Shown here: positions 2,125-12,424 of the stretch, one piece after another
Numbering within the stretch: the first letter of the stretch is position 1
Layout of the letters: each line of letters begins with the position of its first letter
Assembly (NCBI RefSeq): GCF_004358165.1
Contig: NZ_SMTG01000004.1
Location: 62,001 to 126,000, forward strand
DNA: 64,000 bases
From: Luteimonas terrae
Lineage (GTDB): Bacteria > Pseudomonadota > Gammaproteobacteria > Xanthomonadales > Xanthomonadaceae
Direction: 5' to 3'
Program-made: the position numbers and the translations under genes
The notes under the pieces: model-generated
The model's input: the letters and a program-made list of their open reading frames with translations, nothing else
What the model was told of the DNA's origin: nothing
The model's database searches: none

Positions 2125-2715
2125 TTATTCGATGCTGCGCGCATCCGGCACGCGCGCCGGGTCGGCCGCGGACTGCGGCACGCGACGGATCTTGGAGAGG
2201 TCGTAGCCCAGGTCCTGGATGCGCTGCATGTGCGCGGCGTAGTCCGCTTCGGGAATCGACGGCGTGCGGGCCATCAGCCAGACGTAATCGCGCTTGCTGC
2301 GGCCGACGATGGTCTGCTGGTAGTCGTCGTCGACGTAGACGATCACGTACTCGGCCTTGATCGGCCAGACGAACTGCATGCCCCAGATCGCGTTGCCGGT
2401 GTCCTCGCGGACGGTGCCGGTGGGATGCAGGGTCTTGATCTCCTCGTCGAAGCCCCCGTCGCGGTAGCGGAAGGTCGTGTCGACCTTGCCGTCGTCGCGC
2501 AGGGTATAGGTCTCGACCGAGTCGTAGGCCTCCTTCTCGAGGCGCGTCGGGATCTGCGCGATGACGTACCAGTCGCCCATGAAGCGTGCGACGTCGACGT
2601 GGTCGACCGGGGGAATCTGTTCCTTCACGTTGCCGCCTCCACAGGCCGCGAGCATGCCGGTGGCGATGCCCGCGAGGATCAGGCCGGCGGCGAAGCGCCG
2701 GTTCGGGGTTGCCAT
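2125..2715 (-). CDS. blc: Bacterial lipocalin lipoprotein (Blc-like)
   Basis: A 196-residue protein with a signal peptide ending in the lipobox LAAC (Cys about residue 25), so it should be lipidated and outer-membrane anchored. The mature part carries the lipocalin N-terminal signature around FMGDWYVIAQIPT. It also has the strands ETYTLRDDGKVDTTFRYR and EYVIVYVDDDYQQTIVGRSKRDYVWLMAR, followed by the C-terminal helix typical of Blc/VlpA. Lipocalins of this type bind fatty acids or lysophospholipids. It is the last gene of the lipid-modification block, 36 bases after the methyltransferase gene at 2752, so it probably handles lipids released or altered by that pathway. Family assignment is strong; the pathway link is inferred from position. 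Confidence 0.9.
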   Translation of the reverse strand: MATPNRRFAAGLILAGIATGMLAACGGGNVKEQIPPVDHVDVARFMGDWYVIAQIPTRLEKEAYDSVETYTLRDDGKVDTTFRYRDGGFDEEIKTLHPTGTVREDTGNAIWGMQFVWPIKAEYVIVYVDDDYQQTIVGRSKRDYVWLMARTPSIPEADYAAHMQRIQDLGYDLSKIRRVPQSAADPARVPDARSIE

Positions 2716-2751
2716 CTCACACCTCCTGTCGTGACCGCACCGTCGCCGCCC

Positions 2752-3828
2752 TCAGGCGGCGCGTGCGAACCGGTAATGGGCGACCAGCCACTGCTGGCCG
2801 TGCTCGTAACCGAACAGTTCCGCACACGACATCCAGAACATCCGCCAGCGCTGGAACCACAACTTCGCGCCTTCGGCCCCATAGGCCTGCTCCAGCACGC
2901 GCATCACCGCATCGCGGTTGCGGTCCTGGTTGGCGAGCCAGTGATTGGAGGTCTTCTCGTAATGCGTGCCATCGAGCAGCCAGCGCTGCTCGATGCCCAG
3001 GTCGCGTGTCTGGAAATGCAGCAGCGTGTCGGCCGCGGGCATCAGGCCGCCGGTGAAGAAGTGGCGACCCATCCAGTTGTCTTCGCCGGCGGTCTCGAAG
3101 GGGTACATCAACGTGCGGTGCGCGAAGATGTGCACGAACAGCTTGCCGCCCGGCCGCAGCCACGTGCCGATGCGCGACATCAGGATCTGGTAATTGCGCA
3201 TGTGCTCGAACATCTCGATCGACACCACGCGGTCGAAGGCGTCGCTGTCGAGCTCCAGCCGGTTCACGTCGCAGGTGACCACGCGCACGTTGTCCAGCCC
3301 GCGCGCCTTGCATTGCGCCTCGATGTGCAGGCGCTGCGGTCGCGAGTTCGAGACGGCCGTGATGCGCGCCTTGGGAAAGTGCTCGGCCATCCACAGCGTC
3401 AGCGAGCCCCAGCCGCAGCCCAGCTCGAGAATGTCCTGGCCGTCGGCCAGCTCGGCGCGCTGGCCGTAGAGCGCCAGCATCGCCGCCTCGGCTTCATCCA
3501 GCGTCTCGGTGCCGGTGGGGTAGTAACAGCTCGAGTACTTGTAGCGCTTGCCCAGGCACAGCGCGAAGAATTCGGGCGGCAGCTCGTAGTGCTGGCTGTT
3601 GGCCGCGTCGGTGTGGATGGCCACGGCACTGGTGCGCAACGCATCGAGCAGCGCGCTGAAACGCTGCGACTGCGCTTCGAGCCCGCCCGTGCCCTCTTCC
3701 GACAGGCGTTGCGCGCACAGGCGGCGGATGCCCAGGCGCAACGCGGCATCGGGCACCAGGCCGCGTTCGGCCAGGCCGAGCAGGCCGGGCGCTGCGCTGT
3801 CGCGTTCGAGTTCGGTCACTGCGTTCAT
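2752..3828 (-). CDS. CFA-synthase-family (coclaurine N-methyltransferase-like) SAM methyltransferase
   Basis: 358 residues, ATG at 3828 overlapping the stop of the DUF1295 gene by four bases (ATGA). It has the SAM-binding motif ILELGCGWGSLTLWMAEH, then VVSIEMFEHM. The C-terminal half, with VHIFAHRTLMYPFE, DNWMGRHFFTGGLMP and CAELFGYEHGQQW, is typical of the CFA-family branch that includes plant coclaurine N-methyltransferase. It is clearly unlike the second CFA-like protein encoded at 4613. The product of this branch in bacteria is not established, so cyclopropanation should not be assumed. It may methylate an unsaturated acyl chain or another lipid. A continuous open frame extends upstream to 4635 but is only read-through across the DUF1295 gene. 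Confidence 0.85.
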   Translation of the reverse strand: MNAVTELERDSAAPGLLGLAERGLVPDAALRLGIRRLCAQRLSEEGTGGLEAQSQRFSALLDALRTSAVAIHTDAANSQHYELPPEFFALCLGKRYKYSSCYYPTGTETLDEAEAAMLALYGQRAELADGQDILELGCGWGSLTLWMAEHFPKARITAVSNSRPQRLHIEAQCKARGLDNVRVVTCDVNRLELDSDAFDRVVSIEMFEHMRNYQILMSRIGTWLRPGGKLFVHIFAHRTLMYPFETAGEDNWMGRHFFTGGLMPAADTLLHFQTRDLGIEQRWLLDGTHYEKTSNHWLANQDRNRDAVMRVLEQAYGAEGAKLWFQRWRMFWMSCAELFGYEHGQQWLVAHYRFARAA

Positions 3829-4616
3829 GCGGAGGATCCTGGATCGTCGGATTTGGGGAACCACGGAAACAGCATCGGCGTGCTGCGCTGGTAGGCGCGG
3901 TAGTCCTCGCCGCGCGAGCGCAGCGCCTGCTGCTCGGTGTAGGGAATGCCGCTGACGTAGCGCAGGAACAGGTACATCACCACCGGCCCGGCCAGCGACA
4001 GCCACCACAGCGGCGAACCGGCGGCGAGCACCACGTAGGTCAGCCAGTGCAGCCACTCGAAGAAGTAGTTCGGATGCCGCGAATAGCGCCAGAAGCCCTC
4101 GCGGCAGGTCCTGCCCTTGTTGGCCGGATCGGCGCGGAAGTCGGCGAGCTGGCGATCGGCCACCGCTTCGCCCCCGACACTGATCAGCCAGACCACGATC
4201 GCGGCCAGCAGTCCCAGCGACGACACCGGATTGGCCGCCACCGCGACGAAGGGCACGGCGAACAGCACGATCAGCAGGGCTTGCGCCTGGAAGAACAGGA
4301 AGAACTTCGCCTGGTCGCCGTTCCAGTGGTCCCGCAGGTAGGCGTAGCGCCCGTCCTCGTCCTCGCCGCGCACCCGCTTCCATAGATGCGTTGCCAGTCG
4401 CAGGCCCCACAGGCCACCGAGCACCGCGAGCAGGATGCGCGGCAGCGGCGCGCCGTCGCCGAGCAGCGCGACCAGCATCGCCGCGCCGCCGACGCCGCAG
4501 GCCCAGACCACATCGACGATGCCGGCGTTGTCGCGCGTCTTCTGCCAGCGCCAGGCCGCGGTCATCGCGATCGCCGCCAGCAGCCAGACCAGCAGCAGAC
4601 TCCAGAACGGACTCAT
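3825..4616 (-). CDS. DUF1295 (steroid 5-alpha-reductase-like) membrane protein
   Basis: 263 residues with about six to seven hydrophobic segments. The C-terminal signature (CREGFWRYSRHPNYFFEWLHW, then PMLFPWFPKS near the end) is typical of DUF1295 proteins related to 3-oxo-5-alpha-steroid 4-dehydrogenases and isoprenylcysteine methyltransferases. Family members are integral membrane reductases or methyltransferases of unknown substrate. Here the gene is locked between two CFA-family methyltransferases by ATGA overlaps on both sides, which implies coupled translation. A role in reducing or modifying the same membrane lipid is inferred from this position. Confidence 0.85.
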   Translation of the reverse strand: MSPFWSLLLVWLLAAIAMTAAWRWQKTRDNAGIVDVVWACGVGGAAMLVALLGDGAPLPRILLAVLGGLWGLRLATHLWKRVRGEDEDGRYAYLRDHWNGDQAKFFLFFQAQALLIVLFAVPFVAVAANPVSSLGLLAAIVVWLISVGGEAVADRQLADFRADPANKGRTCREGFWRYSRHPNYFFEWLHWLTYVVLAAGSPLWWLSLAGPVVMYLFLRYVSGIPYTEQQALRSRGEDYRAYQRSTPMLFPWFPKSDDPGSSA

Positions 4617-5857
4617 GACGCGCGCATCCGCACATGCCCGGGTTTACCGAACACCAGGTGCGACACGCCGATCGAACGCTCCCGGAAACCGCCTTCGCAA
4701 TAGGCGAGGTAGAACTCCCACATGCGCTCGAAGCGCCGGTCGAAGCCCTGTCGGCGCACCTCGGTCAACTGCGCGAGGAAACGCTCGCGCCAGATCCGCA
4801 GCGTGCGTGCATAGGACGGCCCGAAGTCGTCCTGCTGCAGCAGCTGCAGATCGCTGGCCGCCGTCTTGGCCTGCAGCATCGCCGTGATCGACGGGATGAA
4901 GCTGCCGGGGAAGATGAAGCGCTTGATGAAGTCCACCGAATCACGCGCCTGCACGTAGCGGTGGTCCTCGATGGTGATCGCCTGCACCAGCGCGATGCCG
5001 TCGGGCGCGAGCAGACTGCCGAGCTTGCCGAAGTAGGTCTCCAGATACTGCGCGCCGATCGCCTCGATCATCTCGATCGACACCAGCTTGTCGTAGGTGC
5101 CTTCGAGGTCGCGGTAGTCCTGCAGCAGCAGGGTCACGCGATCCTGCAGGCCGGCCTGGGCGATGCGCGCACTCGCCAGCGCATGCTGTTCGCGCGAGAT
5201 CGTGGTCGTGGTGACGTGGCAGCCGTAATGCCGGGCGGCATGCAGTGCGAAGCCGCCCCAGCCGGTGCCGATCTCGACCACCCGGTCGCCCGGACGCAAG
5301 GCCAGCAGTTCGCAGATGCGGTCAAGCTTGCGTGTGGAGGCGACTTCAAGGCTCTCCTCGTCGCGCTCGAACAGCGCGGACGAGTACATGAGGTCCGGGG
5401 ACAGGAACAGCGAGAAGAAATCGTTGCCGAGGTCGTAGTGCGCGGCGATGTTGCGGCGGCTGCCGTCGCGCGTGTTTCTGCGCAACGCATTCCAGCCGCG
5501 CATCGCCCACCCGCCGACCCGCGCCACGCCCGTCTCCATGCCGTCGAGCAGATCGCGGTTGCGCACCAGCAGACGCACAAGGCCGACGAGGTCGTCGCAC
5601 TCCCAGTATCCGTCCATGTAGGCCTCGCCCGCGCCGACGCTGCCGTTCGCCGCGACCAGCCGGTAGAAGGCGCCGTCGCGCACACGCACGTGGACCGGGC
5701 GGACCTGCGGATCGCCGAACATCTCGACGCCCTGCGCGTCCTCCAACTGCAACGCGCCGCCGCGCAGCTGCGCGAACTGCGCGACCAGCCGACCGCGCAG
5801 CAGCCGCTCCAGCGGGCCGAAGGCGCGCTGCACCGCATGTGCGGCGATCTGGTTCAT
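4613..5857 (-). CDS. Cyclopropane-fatty-acyl-phospholipid synthase-like methyltransferase
   Basis: 414 residues. An N-terminal substrate-handling domain (about 1-130, with YMDGYWECDDLVGLVRL) is followed by the SAM domain with VVEIGTGWGGFALHAARHYG and SIEMIEAIG. The C-terminal YLAYCEGGFRERSIG corresponds to the CFA synthase Cys region. The His that in E. coli CFA synthase follows LFLL (bicarbonate ligand, HTI) is replaced by Gln (LVQAITI) here; the preceding acidic motif reads MIEAIG rather than MFEHVG. This subtype is common beside DUF1365 and FAD-oxidase genes and may not make plain cyclopropanes. It overlaps DUF1365 upstream and DUF1295 downstream by four bases each. Start at 5857 is set by the overlap and by homology. 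Confidence 0.88.
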   Translation of the reverse strand: MNQIAAHAVQRAFGPLERLLRGRLVAQFAQLRGGALQLEDAQGVEMFGDPQVRPVHVRVRDGAFYRLVAANGSVGAGEAYMDGYWECDDLVGLVRLLVRNRDLLDGMETGVARVGGWAMRGWNALRRNTRDGSRRNIAAHYDLGNDFFSLFLSPDLMYSSALFERDEESLEVASTRKLDRICELLALRPGDRVVEIGTGWGGFALHAARHYGCHVTTTTISREQHALASARIAQAGLQDRVTLLLQDYRDLEGTYDKLVSIEMIEAIGAQYLETYFGKLGSLLAPDGIALVQAITIEDHRYVQARDSVDFIKRFIFPGSFIPSITAMLQAKTAASDLQLLQQDDFGPSYARTLRIWRERFLAQLTEVRRQGFDRRFERMWEFYLAYCEGGFRERSIGVSHLVFGKPGHVRMRAS

Positions 5858-6672
5858 CGGGAAGGCTCCTGTTCGGCGACGCCCGGAGGGCGTGGATGGT
5901 CGTGGACCGGATTGCGTTTGAGCCACAGGCGCAGTGCCTGCCAGTGGATCGCGGCCACGACCTGTGCGGTCATCGCCGGATAGCGCCACAACACGCGCGC
6001 CAGTGACACGGCGCCCAAGGGTCGCCGTTGCAGCGTCATGGTGGCGTCGAATTCGCGCACGCCCTCGCGCAGGACATCCATGTGCACGTGCAGATCCTCG
6101 ACCGGCGGCGTCAGGCGCCAGCGGTAGCCGTGGTCCATGGCCATGAACGGCGAGACGTGGAAGCGTTTGTCGAAGTCCCATTGCAGCGCACGCCCGTGAC
6201 GCTCGGCGTCGGCGGCCGGCAGGACGTAGGCGTGGCGCTCTTTCCAGGGCGTGTTGGTGATCTCGGCGACGATGCAGTCGAGCGTCGTACCGTCGGCCTG
6301 GTAGCAGTAGTAGAAGCTCACCGGATTGAAGACGAACCCGAAGTAGCGCAGATGCGTCAGCAGCCGGATCGGCCCCTCGGGCGCGCGCCCGAGTGCGGCC
6401 TGCACGCGCGCACGCACGGCGTCGATCAGCGGCAGCTCCGGCGGGCCCAGATAATCCTCACGGCGGAAGCGCGCGAGCGCCGGACGTCGGCTCGACCACA
6501 ACCAGCGCCCGTCGAAGACGTGGTCGAGCTCGTCGAGATCCAGCCACAGCTGCGCCACGCGATACTCGAATGCGTGCGGCACCGGCCGGTGCCGGCGATG
6601 GCGCACGACGCCCTCGTAGACCGCGCTGTGCAGCGGCGCGGGGACGGGATCGCGTGCGCGCGACGTGGTCAT
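5854..6672 (-). CDS. DUF1365 family protein
   Basis: 272 residues, soluble, with the family hallmarks LHSAVYEGVVRHRR at the N-terminus, LLTHLRYFGFVFNPVSFYYCY, AEITNTPWKERHAYVL and FDKRFHVSPFMAMDHGYRW. DUF1365 has no assigned activity but occurs almost always beside an FAD-dependent oxidase and a CFA-like methyltransferase, as here. That arrangement is known from sigma-factor-controlled lipid stress loci in other proteobacteria. ATG at 6672 overlaps the FAD oxidase stop, and its own stop overlaps the CFA start. Probably a cytoplasmic partner in acyl-chain modification; this is inference. Confidence 0.88.
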   Translation of the reverse strand: MTTSRARDPVPAPLHSAVYEGVVRHRRHRPVPHAFEYRVAQLWLDLDELDHVFDGRWLWSSRRPALARFRREDYLGPPELPLIDAVRARVQAALGRAPEGPIRLLTHLRYFGFVFNPVSFYYCYQADGTTLDCIVAEITNTPWKERHAYVLPAADAERHGRALQWDFDKRFHVSPFMAMDHGYRWRLTPPVEDLHVHMDVLREGVREFDATMTLQRRPLGAVSLARVLWRYPAMTAQVVAAIHWQALRLWLKRNPVHDHPRPPGVAEQEPSR

Positions 6673-7967
6673 GCCGCGCTCGCCACCGCAGGCGACGTGG
6701 CCGCCATGCCGGCTGCCGCCAGCGGCCCGAGCCCGAACGCGCGTGCGACCTGCGCCGCGCTGCGGATGCCGTCCTCGTGGAAGCCCCAGCCCCAGTAGGC
6801 GCCGGCGAACCAGGTCCGCCGCGTGCCCTGGATCTCCCCGCGCCGCGTCTGCGCGGCGACCATGGCCGCGTCGTACACCGGGTGCGCGTAGCGCATGCGC
6901 GCGATCACGCGCGCCGGGTCGATCGCCTCGCTGCGGTTGAGGGTCACGACCAGCGGCTCGGGACTGTCGAGGCCCTGCAGCAGGTCCATGCAGTAACTGA
7001 CCGTGCACGCCTCGCCGGGCATTGCCGGCACATGCGCATTCCACGCCGCCCAGGCCTTGCGGTCGCGTGGCAGCAGACGGGCGTCGGTATGCAGCACGGT
7101 GTCGTTGTGCTGGTAGCGGATCGCGCCCAGCACCTCGCGTTCGGCAACGTCGGCATCGTCGAGCAACGCCAGCGCCTGGTCGCTGTGGCAGGCCATGACG
7201 ACCTGGTCGAAGCGCTCGCTGCCGCCTGCCGTCGCGATCTGCACACCCGCCGCATCGCGGCGCACCGACAGCACCGGACAACCCACGCGCTCGCCCACCG
7301 ACCAGCGCGCGCGCAGGGCATCGATGTAGCGCGACGACCCGCCACGCACCACCCGCCACTCCGGTCGCCCGGTGAGTTGCAGCATGTGGTGGTTGGCCAT
7401 GAACTGGACGAGATAGCGCGCCGGGAAGTCGAGAATCCGCGTGGCCGGCGACGACCACAGCGCCGACGCCATCGGTACCAGATGCAGATCGCGGAAGGTG
7501 GCGCCGTAGCCGTTGGCCTGCAGGTACGCGCCGAGCGTCGGCCCGGCGTCGTCGCTCTCGAGCAGGGCCGGCGCCTCGCGGTAGAAGCGCCGCAGGTCGC
7601 GCAACATGCTCCAGAAGCGCGGCGACAGCAGGTTGCGGCGCTGGCAGAACAGCGTGTCCAGCGAGGTCGCGTTGTATTCGAGGCCGCTGGCGGCGTCGTG
7701 CACCGAAAAGCTCATCGTCGTCGGCTGCGACTCCACGCCGAGCGCGGCGAACAACCCGCTCAACAAGGGATAGTGCTGCGGGTTGAAGACGATGAAGCCG
7801 GTGTCGACCTGCAGCTCGCGGCCGCCGATCCGCACCGCGTGCGTATGCGTGTGGCCGCCCAGCCGCGTGTCGGCCTCGAACAGCGTCACGTCGTGGCGAT
7901 GCGACAGCCACCACGCACTGGCGAGGCCGGCGATCCCCGAACCGACGACGGCGATGCGCTGGCTCAT
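6669..7967 (-). CDS. FAD-dependent oxidoreductase (NAD(P)/FAD-binding, amine-oxidase-like)
   Basis: 432 residues with an N-terminal dinucleotide-binding fold IAVVGSGIAGLASAWWL, the second acidic strand LFEADTRLGGH and a C-terminal FAD segment GAYWGWGFHEDGIRSA. Middle signatures NPQHYPLLSGLFAALGV and YQHNDTVLHTD place it in the family usually found with DUF1365 and CFA-like enzymes. Relatives are annotated as amine oxidases, but the genomic context suggests oxidation or desaturation of a lipid chain. A comparison with the oxygen-dependent furan-fatty-acid enzymes of Rhodobacter is worth making. Four-base overlaps tie it to the desaturase upstream and DUF1365 downstream. Confidence 0.87.
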   Translation of the reverse strand: MSQRIAVVGSGIAGLASAWWLSHRHDVTLFEADTRLGGHTHTHAVRIGGRELQVDTGFIVFNPQHYPLLSGLFAALGVESQPTTMSFSVHDAASGLEYNATSLDTLFCQRRNLLSPRFWSMLRDLRRFYREAPALLESDDAGPTLGAYLQANGYGATFRDLHLVPMASALWSSPATRILDFPARYLVQFMANHHMLQLTGRPEWRVVRGGSSRYIDALRARWSVGERVGCPVLSVRRDAAGVQIATAGGSERFDQVVMACHSDQALALLDDADVAEREVLGAIRYQHNDTVLHTDARLLPRDRKAWAAWNAHVPAMPGEACTVSYCMDLLQGLDSPEPLVVTLNRSEAIDPARVIARMRYAHPVYDAAMVAAQTRRGEIQGTRRTWFAGAYWGWGFHEDGIRSAAQVARAFGLGPLAAAGMAATSPAVASAA

Positions 7968-8917
7968 GCGCGCGCCTTCTCGTGCACCCAGGCCGGCACC
8001 GGCTTGAGATCGCTGACCAGCCGCAGCCACGACATCAGCTTCAGGCCGTACCAGGTCAGGTCGATCTCCCACCAGCGGAAGCCCTGGCGCGCGGTGCCGG
8101 GAAAGAAGTGATGGTTGTTGTGCCAGCCTTCGCCGAAGGTCAGCAGTGCCAGCCACAGGTTGTTGCGGCTGTCGTCACCGGTGTCGAAACGCTGGCTGCC
8201 GAAGCGGTGCGCGAGCGAGTTGATGGTCACCGTGGCGTGGAACAGCACGGTGGTGGAGATGAAGAATCCCCACACCAGCATCTGGCCGCCGCTGGTGCCC
8301 AGGCCCGGCGCAACGCGCTCGAGCAGCGCACCCAGTCCGAACAGCGCCGCTGCCAGCAGCACCGGCACGAGCGTGTCGAAGCGGTCGAGCCAGCGCAGCT
8401 CGGGATACTTCGCCAGATCCGGAATGCGCGACCAGTCGGTGCGGAAGCCCTCGCGCGTCAGGAACCAGCCCATGTGGCTCCACCAGAAGCCGTGCACGCG
8501 CGGCGAATGCGGATCGCGCTCGGTCTCGGTGTGGCGGTGATGGTTGCGGTGATGCGCGGCCCACCACAACGGCCCGCGCTGCACGCAGGACGCGCCGATC
8601 AGCGCGAACACGAACTGCACCACGCGCGACGTGCGGAAGGTGCGATGCGAGAAGTAGCGGTGGTAGAAGCCGGTGATCGCAAACATGCGCACCGCATACA
8701 GCCCAACCGCCACGGCGACGGCGATCGGCGACGCGCCGACCCAGAACACCGCCAGACACGCCAGATGCATGGCCACGAACGGCGCCGCCCGCAACCAGTC
8801 GATGCGGTCGTCACCTTCGCCGATCGGGTCCGCCTGCGCGCCGGTATCGAACCAGCGGCGCAGCGCGCCGGGGGACGTGCGCGCGCCGGTCACGGCGGCG
8901 CGGGGATCGCTCGGCAT
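7964..8917 (-). CDS. Membrane fatty-acid (acyl-CoA) desaturase
   Basis: 317 residues with four hydrophobic stretches and the three histidine boxes of membrane di-iron desaturases: HRYFSHR, HRNHHRHTE and HNNHHFFP, the last in the context EGWHNNHHFFPGTARQG. This is the Delta-9 acyl desaturase pattern. The likely product, a cis-monounsaturated acyl chain, is the normal substrate for CFA-type methyltransferases, two of which lie downstream in the same chain of overlapping genes. I chose ATG 8917 over an in-frame TTG at 8935 because AGGAG lies five bases before it. It is the first gene of the six-gene overlapping run. Confidence 0.92.
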   Translation of the reverse strand: MPSDPRAAVTGARTSPGALRRWFDTGAQADPIGEGDDRIDWLRAAPFVAMHLACLAVFWVGASPIAVAVAVGLYAVRMFAITGFYHRYFSHRTFRTSRVVQFVFALIGASCVQRGPLWWAAHHRNHHRHTETERDPHSPRVHGFWWSHMGWFLTREGFRTDWSRIPDLAKYPELRWLDRFDTLVPVLLAAALFGLGALLERVAPGLGTSGGQMLVWGFFISTTVLFHATVTINSLAHRFGSQRFDTGDDSRNNLWLALLTFGEGWHNNHHFFPGTARQGFRWWEIDLTWYGLKLMSWLRLVSDLKPVPAWVHEKARA

Positions 8918-8946
8918 GGGAACTCCTGCGGACAAGGCATACAGAA

Positions 8947-8974
8947 GATACGCACTGCCGTGAAATCCGGATGC
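8947..8974 (-). promoter_or_regulatory. Candidate ECF (SigK-type) promoter for the desaturase operon
   Basis: Read on the minus strand, GCATCC (8974-8969), a 16-base spacer and CGTATC (8952-8947) lie 30 bases before the desaturase ATG. From memory the mycobacterial SigK promoter is close to CCATCC and CGAAT, which these hexamers resemble. A sister site precedes the sigma operon at 11294-11322. The site is also enclosed by an inverted repeat, CAAGGCAT at 8933-8940 and ATGCCTTG at 8975-8982, which could be an operator or a hairpin. The call rests on two examples only. Confidence 0.5.
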
Positions 8975-9028
8975 ATGCCTTGCACGGCGCGATGCCGTGG
9001 CGCGCGGCCACGGCGATCAGTACGTCCT

Positions 9029-9808
9029 TCAGATCCGCAGTGCGCCGCTCGCGACGACCGGTCCCGTCGGTGCGCCCTGCGGTGCGCCACCCGGCGGTTC
9101 GAGCGAGACCGCCAGCGTCGCGCCTGCAACCAGCGCCGCGCGCAGCGTGTCGGGCACGTCGATGGCGCGCGTGCGATCGTGCGGCAGCAGGCCCAGCGAC
9201 GCCGGTGCGCCGCCTTCGGGGATCAGCCACAGCTCGGCCACGCGTCCTTCTGCATCGACATCGGCCGGCAGCGGCACGACCAGCACCCGCCCGTGCGCGG
9301 CATCGACCGATGCGAGCCAGGCGGGCGAGCCGTCCTCGTGCGCCAGCGTGGTGACCGGTAGCGCGGTGGCGACCGGCGCAGGCGCAGGATCGGGTGTCGG
9401 CGCGATCACGACCGGCGTCTGGCGCGTGTCGTCGACCGGCACACGGCCTGCCAGTACCGCGACGATCGCGACCGCCGCCGCCAGTGCCGCCGCGCTGCGC
9501 CACAGCGCGACGCTGTGCCAGAGCCCTTCGGGCCTGGACGCCACCGGCGCCCAACCGAGCGCGCTGCGGATGCGCGGCCACACGTGCGCGGGCACGTCCG
9601 CCTCGGGCACGCCCGCAAGCCACGGCGCCAGACGTCGTTCCCAGTCGGCGACCAGACGCGCGAAACCGGCATCGTGCGTGAGGCGCGTTTCGACCGACGC
9701 GCGCGCATCGGCATCGAGCACACCCAGCACGTACTCGCCCGCGAGCAGATCCGCGCGCGGCGGCTCGGGGTCGCCGACGTCATCGATGCCGAAGTCGGAG
9801 TCGCGCAT
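9029..9808 (-). CDS. RskA-like anti-sigma factor
   Basis: 259 residues. An N-terminal anti-sigma helix bundle (LLAGEYVLGVLDADARASVE, lacking the His/Cys zinc ligands of ChrR-type factors) is followed by one membrane helix of Ala/Val/Leu at about residues 105-122. A periplasmic C-terminal domain ends with LLPHDRTRAIDVPDTLRA and LAVSLEPPGGAP, the PF10099-type anti-sigma K pattern. It should hold the ECF factor encoded just upstream at the membrane and release it on an envelope or redox signal. ATG at 9814 overlaps the sigma stop, but the ATG at 9808 has GGAGG at a seven-base distance and is preferred. Confidence 0.85.
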   Translation of the reverse strand: MRDSDFGIDDVGDPEPPRADLLAGEYVLGVLDADARASVETRLTHDAGFARLVADWERRLAPWLAGVPEADVPAHVWPRIRSALGWAPVASRPEGLWHSVALWRSAAALAAAVAIVAVLAGRVPVDDTRQTPVVIAPTPDPAPAPVATALPVTTLAHEDGSPAWLASVDAAHGRVLVVPLPADVDAEGRVAELWLIPEGGAPASLGLLPHDRTRAIDVPDTLRAALVAGATLAVSLEPPGGAPQGAPTGPVVASGALRI

Positions 9809-9810
9809 CG

Positions 9811-10380
9811 TCATGCCTCCAGACAGGCGCGCAGCTGCAGCAGGCCGCGTCGGATCCAGCTCTTCACCGATCCCAGCGGCGCGCCTGCGCGTCGCGCGAG
9901 TTCGTCGTAGGTCGAACCGTCGAAGAACGCGGCACGGATCAGGCGGCGGCGACGCGGCTCCAGGGTGTCGAAACACGCGTCGAGCCGGCTGCGATCGCCC
10001 GCCCGTTCGGTGGATTCCAAGGGCGTCTCGCCGTCGTCGGGCATCGCCTCCACCAGTTCGATCGGTGCCAGCGCATGCGCCGGGCGCGCGCGCAGCCGAT
10101 CGATCGCGGTGTTGCGCGCAACCGTGGCCAGCCACGTCGCCGCGCCCGCGCGTGCCGGGTCGAACTGCGCGGCCTTGCGCCAGATGCGCACGTAGACGTC
10201 CTGCAACGCGTCCTCGGCCTCGTCGCGGTCGTGCAGCACGCGGATGCAGATGCCCAGCAGTCGGGACGCGCTTTCGCGATACAGGGCTTCGAAGGCACCG
10301 CGATCGCCCTCGGCCACGCGCCCCAGCCAGTCGTCCAGCCCGGTTCCGGGCGCTGTCGCGGTCGCATCGTGCTGTGGCAT
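9811..10380 (-). CDS. ECF sigma factor (SigK-like)
   Basis: 189 residues. Region 2 includes LYRESASRLLGICIRVLHDRDEAEDALQDVYVRIW and the promoter-melting segment ATWLATVARNTAIDRLR. Region 4 has AAFFDGSTYDELARRAGAPLGSVKSWIRRGLLQLR with its helix-turn-helix. It has no sigma region 1 or 3, as expected for an ECF factor. It is followed by a RskA-like anti-sigma gene with overlap, which places it with SigK-RskA-type pairs rather than the RpoE-ChrR pairs that guard similar lipid loci in alphaproteobacteria. Likely targets are the promoters at 8947 and 11294. The GC-rich segment upstream of MPQHD is probably untranslated. Confidence 0.88.
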   Translation of the reverse strand: MPQHDATATAPGTGLDDWLGRVAEGDRGAFEALYRESASRLLGICIRVLHDRDEAEDALQDVYVRIWRKAAQFDPARAGAATWLATVARNTAIDRLRARPAHALAPIELVEAMPDDGETPLESTERAGDRSRLDACFDTLEPRRRRLIRAAFFDGSTYDELARRAGAPLGSVKSWIRRGLLQLRACLEA

Positions 10381-10490
10381 CCGGTGCGTGCATCCTGGTC
10401 GGGAACCGACGGCCATCCTCGTCGCAGACACGACGCCGCGCAAGCGGCGCGCGTGTCGACGCGGGCGCCGCGCACGTGCGACCGGGGGCT

Positions 10491-11264
10491 TCAGGTCGCG
10501 CATCGGCCGACGAGCGGATCCGCCAGCGCGGCGTCGACTTCGGACGCGGCGACGGCCGTGGCACGTTCCGGAAACACGATGCGCACATCGACCGGCCTGC
10601 CGCGCGCGTCCCGCACCGTGCCGGGCCCGGCGAACTCACGCAGGCGCCGGTCCTGCAACCCGTAGCGCAATTCGATCGGCGCGATCGCGAAGCCGAACCA
10701 GCGGTCGACCGACATCCGCAGGCGGCGTGTGCCGTCGACATCGCCCGCCGGCGTCACCCGCACCGGCATGAAGGCGAACCTTTCCGGCAGCAGGAACGAC
10801 AGCCGCTGCGGCCCGCCGCCCAGCGCCGTCCACTGCGCGCGTACCGCTGCGTCGAAGCCTGCATCGATCACCGCATCCCCGGCCTGGGGCAATGGCTCGG
10901 TGCGCATGGCCTGACCGGCGCGCTGCACGAAGATCTCGCGATGTCCGTCGCGTGTGCGCACCCCTTCCCGGTAGCCGCTGCGTGCATCGTGGAACGCGAA
11001 GTCCGGCTGCGCATCGGCAGCGGTCGCCAGGACGGTCTTGCGCGCGAAGGCCACGCCATCCGGGCACTGGTAGAGCACGACCCGGCGTGCGACATCGCCC
11101 GTGCGATCGCGGTAGTGCACTTCCCGATAGAGCAGACGTCCGTCGTCACGCGACAGGGCGCGCGCGTCCTCGCGCTCGACGGCCGCCACCGGCAGGGCCG
11201 CGAGCAGGCCAACGACCAACCCGACGCAGCGCGCACCTGTGCGAGCGGACTGCAGCTTCGACAT
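10491..11264 (-). CDS. Secreted protein of unknown function in the sigma-factor locus
   Basis: 257 residues with a Sec signal peptide (basic N-terminus, VGLVVGLLAALPVAA, predicted cleavage near residue 28). The mature part starts DGRLLYREVHYRD and contains CPDGVAFARKTV and a central FLLPERFAFMPVRV. A single Cys lies in VLYQCPDG and another at the C-terminus (GRCAT). I do not recognise a named family. It sits 110 bases upstream of the sigma gene in the same orientation and behind a candidate ECF promoter, so it is probably a periplasmic member of the same stress regulon. It could act in sensing or in lipid/envelope repair, but nothing in the sequence decides this. Confidence 0.75.
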   Translation of the reverse strand: MSKLQSARTGARCVGLVVGLLAALPVAAVEREDARALSRDDGRLLYREVHYRDRTGDVARRVVLYQCPDGVAFARKTVLATAADAQPDFAFHDARSGYREGVRTRDGHREIFVQRAGQAMRTEPLPQAGDAVIDAGFDAAVRAQWTALGGGPQRLSFLLPERFAFMPVRVTPAGDVDGTRRLRMSVDRWFGFAIAPIELRYGLQDRRLREFAGPGTVRDARGRPVDVRIVFPERATAVAASEVDAALADPLVGRCAT

Positions 11265-11293: not shown

Positions 11294-11322
11294 CCTACGG
11301 GCGCTGCGCCCGTCACGGATGC
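11294..11322 (-). promoter_or_regulatory. Candidate ECF promoter for the sigma-factor operon
   Basis: On the minus strand GCATCC (11322-11317), a 17-base spacer and CGTAGG (11299-11294) lie 30 bases before the ATG at 11264. The -35-like hexamer is identical to that at 8969-8974 and the -10-like element shares CGTA. The spacer contains the palindrome GGGCGCAGCGCCC. If genuine, the sigma factor activates its own transcription. Confidence 0.45.
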
Positions 11323-11329
11323 AGCGGGT

Positions 11330-12424
11330 TCAGCGTGCGTCCACGGCCTGTCGCGCCAGCGCGGGATCGTCGGCGAACAGACCATCGATGCCGGCGTCGA
11401 GGAACAGCCGCATTTCCGCAAGCGCGCCGGCATCGTGACGCGCGTTCGCCGCGCCGCTGCGCAGACTGCGCGGGAGATACGCATTCTCGGGCCGGAAGGT
11501 GTAGGGCATGACCTTCAGGCCGGCCGCATGTGCGTCGGCCACCAACGTCGTTGCTTCGAGGCGGCCACCGCGGACGACCTCGCCGATCTGCGCCTTGTGC
11601 GGGCCGAGCCAGCGTGCGTACGTCGCTATGCCGCGCAGCCCGTCGGGCGTGAGCAGATCGCGATAGCGCGTATGGCCGCCCGTGGCCTCGACATCGGCCG
11701 GCCACGTGGCCGGATCGCTGATCAGCTGCAGCAGTGCGAGCGCCGGCAGCGGGTCTGCGCCGATCCGCGCCAGCGTGCGCAGGCTGTCGGGCTCGAACGA
11801 CTGCACCACCAGCGGCACGCGCCGGGCGACTTCGTGCGTGGCCAGCGCATCGACGAGCGCCCGCTCCATCGGCAGACCGATGGCGCGGAAGTGCGTGGGG
11901 TGCTTGATCTCGGGAATCAGACCGATGTCGCGCCCGGAGCTGCGCACCAGATCGTCGAGCAGCGCCATGATCTCGTGCAGCGTGGGCACCGCGAACTGGC
12001 GGTCGTACCAGATGCCGCGCAGCGCAGGCAGCGGCTCGCGCGCACGCAGGGTCTTGAGTTCGGCCAGCGAGAAATCCTCGGTGAACCATCCGGTCACCTC
12101 GATGCCGTCGATGCGCTGGGTCCGCTTGCGATCGGCGAACTGCGGATGCAGGGCGACATCGGTGGTGCCGCCGATCTCGTTCTCGTGGCGCGCGACCAGC
12201 ACACCGTCGCGCGTCATCACCAGGTCCGGCTCGATGAAGTCCGCGCCGTCCTCGACCGCGCGCCGGTAGGCCGCCAGCGTGTGCTCGGGCATGCGGGCAC
12301 TGGCGCCGCGGTGGGCGATGACCAGAGGTTTCGCGGTGGCGGTTTCCGCGTGTGCGGGCCGGGCGGGCATCATCGTGGCGGCAGTGGCGATCAGCAGCGG
12401 CAGCAGAACACGCATCGGGGACAT
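11330..12424 (-). CDS. glpQ: Periplasmic glycerophosphodiester phosphodiesterase
   Basis: 364 residues with a signal peptide (ending PARPAHA, about residue 26). It has the GDPD TIM-barrel signatures: [19 protein letters not shown] with the catalytic His-Arg, [20 protein letters not shown] with the metal ligands and second His, and LIPEIKHP. It hydrolyses deacylated phospholipids to glycerol-3-phosphate and an alcohol. Length and signal peptide match periplasmic GlpQ rather than cytoplasmic UgpQ. No glp transporter genes are adjacent. It lies immediately upstream of the sigma locus on the same strand, with the candidate sigma promoter only seven bases past its stop, so it is probably transcribed separately. 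Start at 12424; the Met at 12415 is an equal alternative. Confidence 0.93.

What the first reader, a model, noticed from the sequence alone, without database searches (positions are those of the whole stretch)
2125..11264. Nine-gene lipid-remodelling island under a SigK/RskA-type pair, with an unbroken chain of ATGA overlaps
Desaturase, FAD oxidase, DUF1365, CFA-like methyltransferase, DUF1295 and a second CFA-family methyltransferase follow each other with four-base overlaps at all five junctions, and end with a lipocalin. Related gene sets elsewhere sit under RpoE-ChrR and include furan-fatty-acid enzymes. Here the guard is a zinc-free RskA-like factor. The set suggests synthesis and handling of a non-standard (methylated, cyclopropane, furan or other) acyl chain upon envelope or oxidative stress.
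Basis: partly seen in the sequence, partly recalled or inferred. Interest (0 to 1): 0.78.

Follow-up and report, generated by a model that had tools for sequence, protein, structure and literature searches.

The report
Stress-induced furan fatty acid operon
This stretch of a bacterial genome very probably makes rare furan-ring membrane fats in response to stress, and its switch is of a different type from the one that normally controls these genes, although close relatives use either type with the same DNA start signal.

Summary
Six minus-strand genes (desaturase to second methyltransferase) join by ATGA at 5 of 5 junctions; sigma/anti-sigma overlap likewise. The chain breaks before the desaturase (111 nt, with a promoter) and before the lipocalin (36 nt). 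FAD oxidase, DUF1365 and CFA1 match ufaD, ufaO and ufaM of the furan fatty acid pathway. CFA2 with DUF1295 matches a FufM candidate and its neighbour in Rhodopseudomonas palustris, which predicts a dimethyl-furan product. A published nine-gene Stenotrophomonas cluster under RpoE-ChrR has matching genes in the same order plus one extra, and was not read as a furan pathway. Here the neighbouring pair is SigK/RskA-like, without the zinc motif and with both redox cysteines of SigK. A GCATCC-N15/17-CGTA promoter precedes the desaturase in 15 of 16 related loci, whatever the guard, and precedes the sigma operon here. This genome also has a ChrR pair elsewhere with the same site. Of 37 genomes examined in the genus, the 10 with the operon carry RskA (2), ChrR (5) or both (3). 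It is a new regulatory variant of a known pathway. Product, inducer and sigma-promoter contact are inferred, not shown.

The parts
11296..11322 (-). Predicted ECF promoter TGCATCC-N17-CGTA before up257-sigma-anti-sigma, 58 nt before the up257 start codon
   Evidence: a site also precedes up257 in L064 and L074
10491..11264 (-). 257-aa protein (up257) with N-terminal signal-like helix, predicted LolA/RseB/DUF1849-like half-barrel; counterpart by position of Smlt2375 (inference)
   Evidence: periplasmic protein at the same place in PMC11832516
9811..10380 (-). ECF sigma factor, SigK-like, with Cys136/Cys186 at the places of SigK Cys133/Cys183
9029..9814 (-). Anti-sigma factor with RskA_C domain, no cysteine, no HxxxCxxC
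8949..8974 (-). Predicted ECF promoter TGCATCC-N16-CGTAT of the biosynthetic operon, 57 nt before the desaturase start
   Evidence: site in 15 of 16 loci
7964..8917 (-). Fatty acid desaturase (PF00487); start placed at ATG 8917 after GGAG
6669..7967 (-). UfaD: FAD oxidoreductase, 45% to R. palustris XCP UfaD
   Evidence: function from PMC7380195
5854..6672 (-). UfaO: DUF1365, 39% to R. palustris XCP UfaO
   Evidence: function from PMC7380195
4613..5857 (-). UfaM: CMAS-family methylase (CFA1)
3825..4616 (-). DUF1295 membrane-type protein, neighbour of the FufM candidate in R. palustris
2752..3828 (-). FufM-type methylase (CFA2), 48-50% to the R. palustris FufM candidates
2125..2715 (-). Lipocalin (Blc-like, below the NCBIfam cut-off), AGGAGGT before its start, 36 nt after CFA2

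Best explanation
The locus is a furan fatty acid operon with its own sigma/anti-sigma switch. At rest the RskA-like protein holds the SigK-like sigma factor. A stress signal (oxidative or photo-oxidative, perhaps through the sigma factor's Cys136-Cys186 pair) frees it. It then reads TGCATCC-N16/17-CGTA at two promoters: before up257-sigma-rskA and before the desaturase-to-lipocalin genes. A cis double bond, made by the desaturase or by fatty acid synthesis, is methylated by UfaM. UfaD makes the conjugated diene, UfaO inserts oxygen from O2 to close the furan ring, and FufM adds a second methyl. DUF1295 assists FufM in an unknown way; up257 and the lipocalin handle lipid in the envelope. A separate RpoE-ChrR pair in the same genome may read the same promoters. 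Supported by sequence and phylogeny: enzyme families, UfaM/FufM clades, promoter conservation, guard types. Inferred: the product, the order of steps here, the inducer, sigma-promoter contact, co-transcription, and the roles of DUF1295, up257 and the lipocalin.
For: Two named R. palustris genomes each hold three CMAS proteins above 100 bits: UfaM beside ufaO and ufaD, a CFAS-like one, and a FufM candidate next to DUF1295, which fits the inventory in PMC7380195 (UfaM; RPA3082 and RPA0924 = FufM, 38% and 26% to R. sphaeroides UfaM). Quick tree of 97 rows: CFA1 with UfaM, E. coli Cfa and the CFAS-like pair outside (support 98); CFA2 with the FufM candidates (support 100). CFA1 and both UfaM carry Ser and Gln where E. 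coli Cfa has Cys and His. CFA2 and the XCP FufM candidate match coclaurine N-methyltransferase far better than CFA synthase. DUF1365 and full CFA2 orthologs are each found in 28 of 61 genomes, 27 of them shared. Site before the desaturase in 15 of 16 loci, against a mean of 0.0145 of 16 in 2000 simulated sets. Sigma nearest to SigK among solved structures; its two cysteines in 7 of 7 RskA-type and 0 of 7 ChrR-type sigmas compared. RskA orthologs (E <= 1e-12) in 6 of 61 genomes, each beside the operon. A Stenotrophomonas cluster with matching order is induced 165-697-fold in a chrR mutant (PMC11832516, one RNA-seq run).
Against: No lipid data exist for this organism. Identity of CFA1 to UfaM (40-43%) is hardly above that to the R. 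palustris CFAS-like proteins (39-40%), so the assignment rests on tree and active-site letters; the tree is a quick one and warns of long branches, E. coli Cfa among them. The FufM candidates were identified by elimination; the tested RPA0924 sequence was not compared. The promoter pattern was read from the same loci on which it was then counted, and the simulation does not remove relatedness. In the own genome the pattern occurs 22 times against 29 for the reversed control, so only position makes a site credible. Of 10 more distant loci of the order with a desaturase, 1 has the strict pattern upstream. It was not found before the sigma operon in L068 and L072, nor before the trans sigma-chrR pair in 4 of 7 genomes, among them G001 and G019, which carry both guards. 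In S. maltophilia, sigma activation did not affect singlet oxygen tolerance (PMC11832516).
Confidence: 0.68

Rival explanations
1. The two CMAS proteins are cyclopropane synthases and the cluster only adjusts membrane properties; no furan is made. This is close to the published reading of the Stenotrophomonas cluster.
For: Both match CMAS; the counterparts are annotated CfaS1 and CfaS2 in PMC11832516.
Against: CFA1 groups with UfaM apart from E. coli Cfa, CFA2 with the FufM candidates; Cys and His of the Cfa site are Ser and Gln in CFA1 as in UfaM; UfaD and UfaO flank it.
Confidence: 0.12
2. The product is a 10-methyl branched (tuberculostearic-type) acid, as recalled for the mycobacterial UfaA1 gene near sigK, with UfaD and UfaO acting otherwise.
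For: The mycobacterial SigK locus is recalled to hold the same gene types; PMC7509140 (passages) says only that sigK is autoregulated through the Rv0449c promoter. UfaM alone gives a methylated monoene (PMC7380195, PMC12089945, passages).
Against: FufM has no known role in such a pathway, yet its ortholog co-occurs with DUF1365 in 27 of 61 genomes.
Confidence: 0.08
3. The desaturase operon is driven mainly by the RpoE-ChrR pair in trans; the SigK/RskA pair controls mostly itself and the fasciclin lipoprotein.
For: The promoter has the layout of the P. syringae RpoE-ChrR consensus TGATCC-N16-CGTA (PMC5507510). ChrR is present in this genome with the same site. Five genomes of the genus with the operon have ChrR above cut-off and no RskA ortholog.
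Against: G022, G006 (same genus) and G047 have the operon, the desaturase site and RskA but no ChrR match; G006 is only 88% complete.
Confidence: 0.2

Closest known systems
Nine-gene cluster smlt2375-smlt2367 of Stenotrophomonas maltophilia (PMC11832516)
   Same: Matching order as far as its annotation tells: periplasmic protein, desaturase, FAD oxidase, hypothetical, CFA synthase, membrane proteins, CFA synthase, lipocalin; induced together by an ECF sigma factor
   Different: Guard is ChrR, divergent; one extra membrane gene (DUF2878 at that place in the look-alike locus L091) absent here; not read as a furan pathway ('furan' has 0 occurrences in the main text)
Furan fatty acid pathway UfaM/UfaD/UfaO/FufM of Rhodobacter sphaeroides and Rhodopseudomonas palustris (PMC7380195)
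   Same: All four enzyme classes present; DUF1295 next to the FufM candidate as in R. palustris, with the 4-nt overlap in XCP
   Different: Here all four lie in one run of genes with a desaturase and lipocalin; in R. palustris fufM is apart from ufaMOD
SigK-RskA of Mycobacterium and Yersinia (PMC7509140; PDB 4nqw)
   Same: SigK-like sigma with the Cys133/Cys183 equivalents, RskA_C anti-sigma; a fasciclin lipoprotein with the promoter in this genome recalls mpt83 (that MPT83 is a fasciclin protein is recalled)
   Different: Below the NCBIfam SigK cut-off (146.6 against 226 bits); SigK promoters elsewhere were not compared
RpoE-ChrR (ECF11) regulon (PMC6852236, PMC5507510)
   Same: Furan fatty acid genes among the core targets and the same promoter spacing (ATCC-N16-CGTA)
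   Different: The cis guard lacks the zinc motif; it is RskA-like
R. capsulatus 'RpoE/ChrR' (PMC7074977)
   Same: A SigK/RskA-like pair induced by photo-oxidative stress in place of RpoE/ChrR
   Different: No homologs of RSP_1090 and RSP_1091 (ufaO, ufaD) are listed for R. capsulatus

Membership tests
Furan fatty acid pathway | UfaM-clade CMAS methylase, distinct from Cfa | tested here: met
   (support 98, quick tree), active-site letters
Furan fatty acid pathway | UfaD (FAD) and UfaO (DUF1365) beside UfaM | tested here: met
Furan fatty acid pathway | FufM-clade second methylase (dimethyl product) | tested here: met
   FufM identified by elimination in two named R. palustris genomes, RPA0924 itself not compared
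Furan fatty acid pathway | Furan fatty acid actually made, oxygen from O2 | not testable with these tools
   needs GC-MS and 18O2
SigK-RskA (ECF18/19) | Sigma nearest to SigK, with the two cysteines | tested here: met
SigK-RskA (ECF18/19) | RskA_C anti-sigma encoded next to it | tested here: met
SigK-RskA (ECF18/19) | Passes the NCBIfam SigK cut-off | tested here: not met
   146.6 bits against 226; so called SigK-like, not filed as SigK
RpoE-ChrR (ECF11) | Cis anti-sigma with HxxxCxxC (ChrR) | tested here: not met
   no motif, no cysteine; a ChrR above cut-off lies elsewhere in the genome
RpoE-ChrR (ECF11) | ATCC-N16-CGTA promoter before the ufa genes | tested here: met
   consensus from PMC5507510; the first two bases of the -35 differ
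Cyclopropane synthase (Cfa) | Cys139 and His266 of E. coli Cfa (roles and numbers recalled) | tested here: not met
   Ser and Gln in CFA1
LolA/RseB-like fold (up257) | Half-barrel fold | tested here: inconclusive
   DUF1849 6ntr Z 11.3, rmsd 4.5, 195 aligned; LolA Z up to 9.5; RseB Z 8.5; Foldseek TM-scores low

The most novel reading that the evidence does not exclude
Two unrelated guard systems, SigK/RskA and RpoE/ChrR, have converged on one promoter code for furan fatty acid genes, so that species gain, lose or keep either guard without rewriting the regulon. Furan lipids, or their oxidation products, would act as the shared signal that releases both sigma factors. That would explain why a zinc-free membrane guard can replace a zinc-binding one, and would give SigK/RskA, whose stimulus is unknown, an inducer.
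Probability: 0.22. Interest if true: 0.8.

Novelty: new variant of a known kind. Interest (0 to 1): 0.56.

Why it matters
It gives a concrete biochemical identity, dimethyl-furan fatty acid synthesis, to a kind of stress cluster whose strong induction and drug-susceptibility effect in Stenotrophomonas were read as cyclopropane-type membrane lipid modification. It also offers a natural experiment: one genus in which the same operon with the same promoter sits with RskA, ChrR or both. This makes two open questions testable: what SigK/RskA senses, and whether furan lipids are part of the signal.

Tried and rejected
Regulon search by promoter pattern alone: 22 genome hits against 29 in the reversed control, so the genome-wide list is not meaningful. 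Hits in front of genes were looked at: desaturase, up257, a fasciclin lipoprotein, a TPR protein and a DUF4136 lipoprotein, plus the site before the own rpoE-chrR pair. The TPR and DUF4136 sites were not tested for conservation.

Background rate of ATGA junctions: my crude gene caller found 11 close pairs and mis-set starts; not used.

Whether the operon desaturase is the only one: no, the genome has three PF00487 matches over the cut-off.

Fold of up257: no clear functional answer. The top row, a chain from an axonemal microtubule entry (9fqr, Z 11.8), was not pursued.

PDB search with the anti-sigma gave nothing below E 0.33. Generic sigma-70 promoters and terminators: 0 and 3 found against shuffle means of 0.7 and 2.7.

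Literature: searches showed no paper naming a furan fatty acid operon under SigK/RskA. Only the listings were seen (at most 20 each; some had 2,322, 323 and 36 papers), and the library holds open-licence papers only. Dufour 2008 (PMC2579311) is not held. No paper was read whole: sections 3.6 and Discussion of PMC11832516, otherwise passages.

Rows dropped: the methylase tree left out hits of 150 bits or less, proteins of 300 aa or less, and identical rows.
Full report
WHAT IS THERE. The minus strand from 11264 to 2125 carries ten genes: a 257-aa protein (up257), an ECF sigma factor, an RskA_C anti-sigma factor, a fatty acid desaturase, a FAD oxidoreductase, DUF1365, a CMAS methylase (CFA1), DUF1295, a second CMAS methylase (CFA2) and a lipocalin. 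ATGA overlaps join sigma to anti-sigma and all five junctions from desaturase to CFA2. A 111-nt gap separates anti-sigma from desaturase, and 36 nt with AGGAGGT precede the lipocalin. The desaturase start is best placed at ATG 8917 after GGAG. Overlaps recur at many of the same junctions in relatives and between DUF1295 and the FufM candidate of R. palustris XCP. They indicate coupling and are not remarkable in themselves.

WHAT THE ENZYMES ARE. PMC7380195 (passages) reports that UfaM methylates a phospholipid monoene, that UfaD (NAD/FAD-binding) makes a methylated diene, that UfaO (DUF1365) forms the furan with oxygen from O2, and that FufM adds a second methyl in R. palustris. I scanned named genomes with a Rhodopseudomonas-like CFA2 homolog (L104); 375 loci were confirmed and the best 80 kept. 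Two R. palustris genomes among them (strains XCP and 2.1.18) were searched for CMAS. Each has three matches above 100 bits: one beside ufaO and ufaD (UfaM), one CFAS-like, and one with DUF1295 next to it. The paper describes the same three kinds (UfaM, RPA3082, RPA0924 = FufM). Window CFA2 is 48-50% identical to the last over 336-339 residues and 27-32% to the others. CFA1 is 40-43% identical to UfaM and 39-40% to the CFAS-like proteins, so identity alone does not decide. A quick tree of 97 rows puts CFA1 with UfaM (37 rows, support 98), with E. coli Cfa and the CFAS-like pair outside, and CFA2 with the FufM candidates (57 rows, support 100); it carries long-branch warnings. In the alignment to E. 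coli Cfa, CFA1 has Ser for Cys139 and Gln for His266 (numbering and bicarbonate role recalled). Both UfaM proteins show the same letters and the CFAS-like ones do not. CFA2 matches coclaurine N-methyltransferase (1.4e-74) far better than CFA synthase (9.7e-23), and so does the XCP FufM candidate (3.5e-61 and 4.5e-27). PMC10940516 (passages) reports FufM at 37.9% to a plant methyltransferase, AT4G33110 (that this is coclaurine-methyltransferase-like is recalled).

CONSERVATION. In 61 genomes (own plus 60 relatives), DUF1365 is found in 28 and a full CFA2 ortholog (above 380 bits) in 28, with 27 shared; G039 has only CFA2 and G053 only DUF1365. In the window's genus both are present in the same 10 of 37. 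Across the phylum, CFA2 homologs at E <= 1e-50 occur in 33 of 398 genomes. The order desaturase-ufaD-ufaO-ufaM-DUF1295-CFA2 is complete in 20 of the 31 loci L064-L094; the other 11 lack one or more genes in the stretch or differ in order. In the 25 more distant loci L095-L119, DUF1295 is in the same stretch as CFA2 in 22 and ufaD in 11. Several relatives have about 520-620 nt between ufaM and DUF1295, a DUF2878 gene in the locus tested; the window lacks it.

THE KNOWN SIBLING. PMC11832516 (sections 3.6 and Discussion read; passages) describes smlt2375-smlt2367 in S. maltophilia: periplasmic protein, desaturase, FAD oxidase, hypothetical, CfaS2, two membrane proteins, CfaS1, lipocalin. The cluster rises 165-697-fold in a chrR mutant (one RNA-seq run) and depends on the RpoE-type sigma. 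Deleting the nine genes nearly reverses the mutant's menadione tolerance and ceftazidime susceptibility. Singlet oxygen tolerance was not affected. The authors read the cluster as membrane lipid modification by CFA synthases; 'furan' has no occurrence in the main text. L091 has the same arrangement with a ChrR-like protein; L092 and L093 have the reversed sigma gene, but their anti-sigma was not looked at.

THE GUARDS. The window sigma is nearest to M. tuberculosis SigK in the PDB (109 bits; RpoE of R. sphaeroides 85) but below the NCBIfam SigK cut-off. It has both cysteines at the places of SigK 133 and 183, as do 7 of 7 RskA-type sigmas compared and 0 of 7 ChrR-type ones. PMC7509140 (passages) reports that this disulfide affects SigK-RskA binding, and that an mpt83-sigK-rskA cassette occurs also in Gram-negatives. 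The anti-sigmas lack HxxxCxxC in 7 of 7 and cysteine in 6 of 7. The window's genome also has an RpoE-ChrR pair: ChrR 140 bits, over the cut-off, its sigma nearest to RpoE (116 bits; SigK 46). In the genus, of 10 genomes with the operon, RskA orthologs occur in 5 and ChrR above cut-off in 8: both in G000, G001 and G019; RskA only in G006 and G022; ChrR only in G009, G011, G020, G021 and G031. Of 27 genus genomes without the operon, RskA occurs in 0 and ChrR in 1 (G035). RskA orthologs (E <= 1e-12) are found in 6 of 61 genomes and each lies beside the operon. ChrR is in cis in G009, G011 and G020 by coordinates. Outside the genus, 17 genomes have both DUF1365 and CFA2: G047 has RskA only, G056 ChrR only, and 15 have neither at these thresholds, 8 of them with weak ChrR-model matches below the cut-off. 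So the guard pattern is stated for the near group only.

THE PROMOTER. Upstream of the desaturase, GCATCC-N15/17-CGTA occurs in 15 of 16 loci of the two nearest families: 14 at 51-61 nt and one at 85 nt before the start codon. First-order simulations give a mean of 0.0145 of 16 and a maximum of 1 in 2000. The pattern was read from these same loci and their relatedness is not removed. L094 has GGATCC instead. The site is present whether the cis pair is RskA, ChrR or absent (L065, L066, L069). A site also precedes up257-sigma-rskA in the window, L064 and L074, and precedes the sigma in L098 and, at greater distance, L067; the strict pattern was not found there in L068 and L072. Sites lie 189-285 nt before the matched part of the sigma in L070, L071, L073 and L091-L093. 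Before sigma-chrR pairs in trans it was found in 3 of 7 loci (own genome, G035, G056) and not in G001, G019, G031 and G021. Of 10 more distant loci of the order with a desaturase, 1 had it upstream. The P. syringae RpoE-ChrR consensus from ChIP-seq is TGATCC-N16-CGTA (PMC5507510, passages): the same layout with a different start of the -35. A fasciclin lipoprotein in this genome has the site 91 nt upstream. Of 38 fasciclin matches in 32 genomes, 30 loci were returned and examined: strict sites in 4 (G000, G001, G019, G006, all RskA-bearing), variants in 2 (G031, G021), none in 24. The other RskA-bearing genomes, G022 and G047, have no fasciclin match. R. sphaeroides RpoE also has a fasciclin target (RSP_1409, PMC7074977); mpt83 and mpt70 are SigK targets (PMC7509140), and that they encode fasciclin proteins is recalled.

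MECHANISM. The most economical model is a stress-induced furan fatty acid pathway with a SigK/RskA-like switch in cis and possibly RpoE/ChrR as a second input through the same promoters. Precedents for a SigK/RskA pair in this role: the R. capsulatus 'RpoE/ChrR' is SigK/RskA-like and induced by photo-oxidative stress (PMC7074977, passages), and in M. kansasii two genes with putative SigK sites rise in light (PMC9861118, passages). In R. sphaeroides, mutants without furan fatty acid genes are defective in singlet-oxygen activation of the sigma factor (PMC6852236, passages), which suggests a lipid feedback signal. The model of up257 is confident (pLDDT 86.7, pTM 0.81) and resembles LolA/RseB/DUF1849 half-barrels, consistent with lipid handling or, beside the sigma gene, an RseB-like role. 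Neither role is shown.

VERDICT. A real, conserved operon with a conserved promoter, and a new regulatory variant of the furan fatty acid (RpoE-ChrR core) gene set.

Noticed in passing
11330-12424, minus strand: A gene that looks by eye like a glycerophosphodiester phosphodiesterase ends about 7 nt before the predicted up257 promoter; similar neighbours in L064 and L067. Not tested as part of the regulon.
   Followed up: no
L235:1592-2254 (G000:C9), plus strand: Fasciclin-domain lipoprotein with a GCATCC-N17-CGTA site 91 nt upstream; of 30 fasciclin loci examined, strict sites only in four RskA-bearing genomes.
   Followed up: yes
L224/L240 (G000:C5:1543103-1544466), minus strand: A second, RpoE-ChrR pair in the same genome with the same promoter pattern.
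   Followed up: yes
L236:845-1441 and L230:1579-2814: A DUF4136 lipoprotein and a TPR protein start 59 and 52 nt after a copy of the promoter pattern; conservation not examined.
   Followed up: partly
L094 (G091), about 36-780 nt upstream of the desaturase, opposite strand: A protein that looks by eye like a fasciclin lies divergently next to the operon in this relative, as if the cassette had been joined.
   Followed up: no
L245 (G035): A genus member without the operon keeps a ChrR pair with a GCATCC-N16-CGTA site before its sigma gene; its targets are unknown.
   Followed up: no
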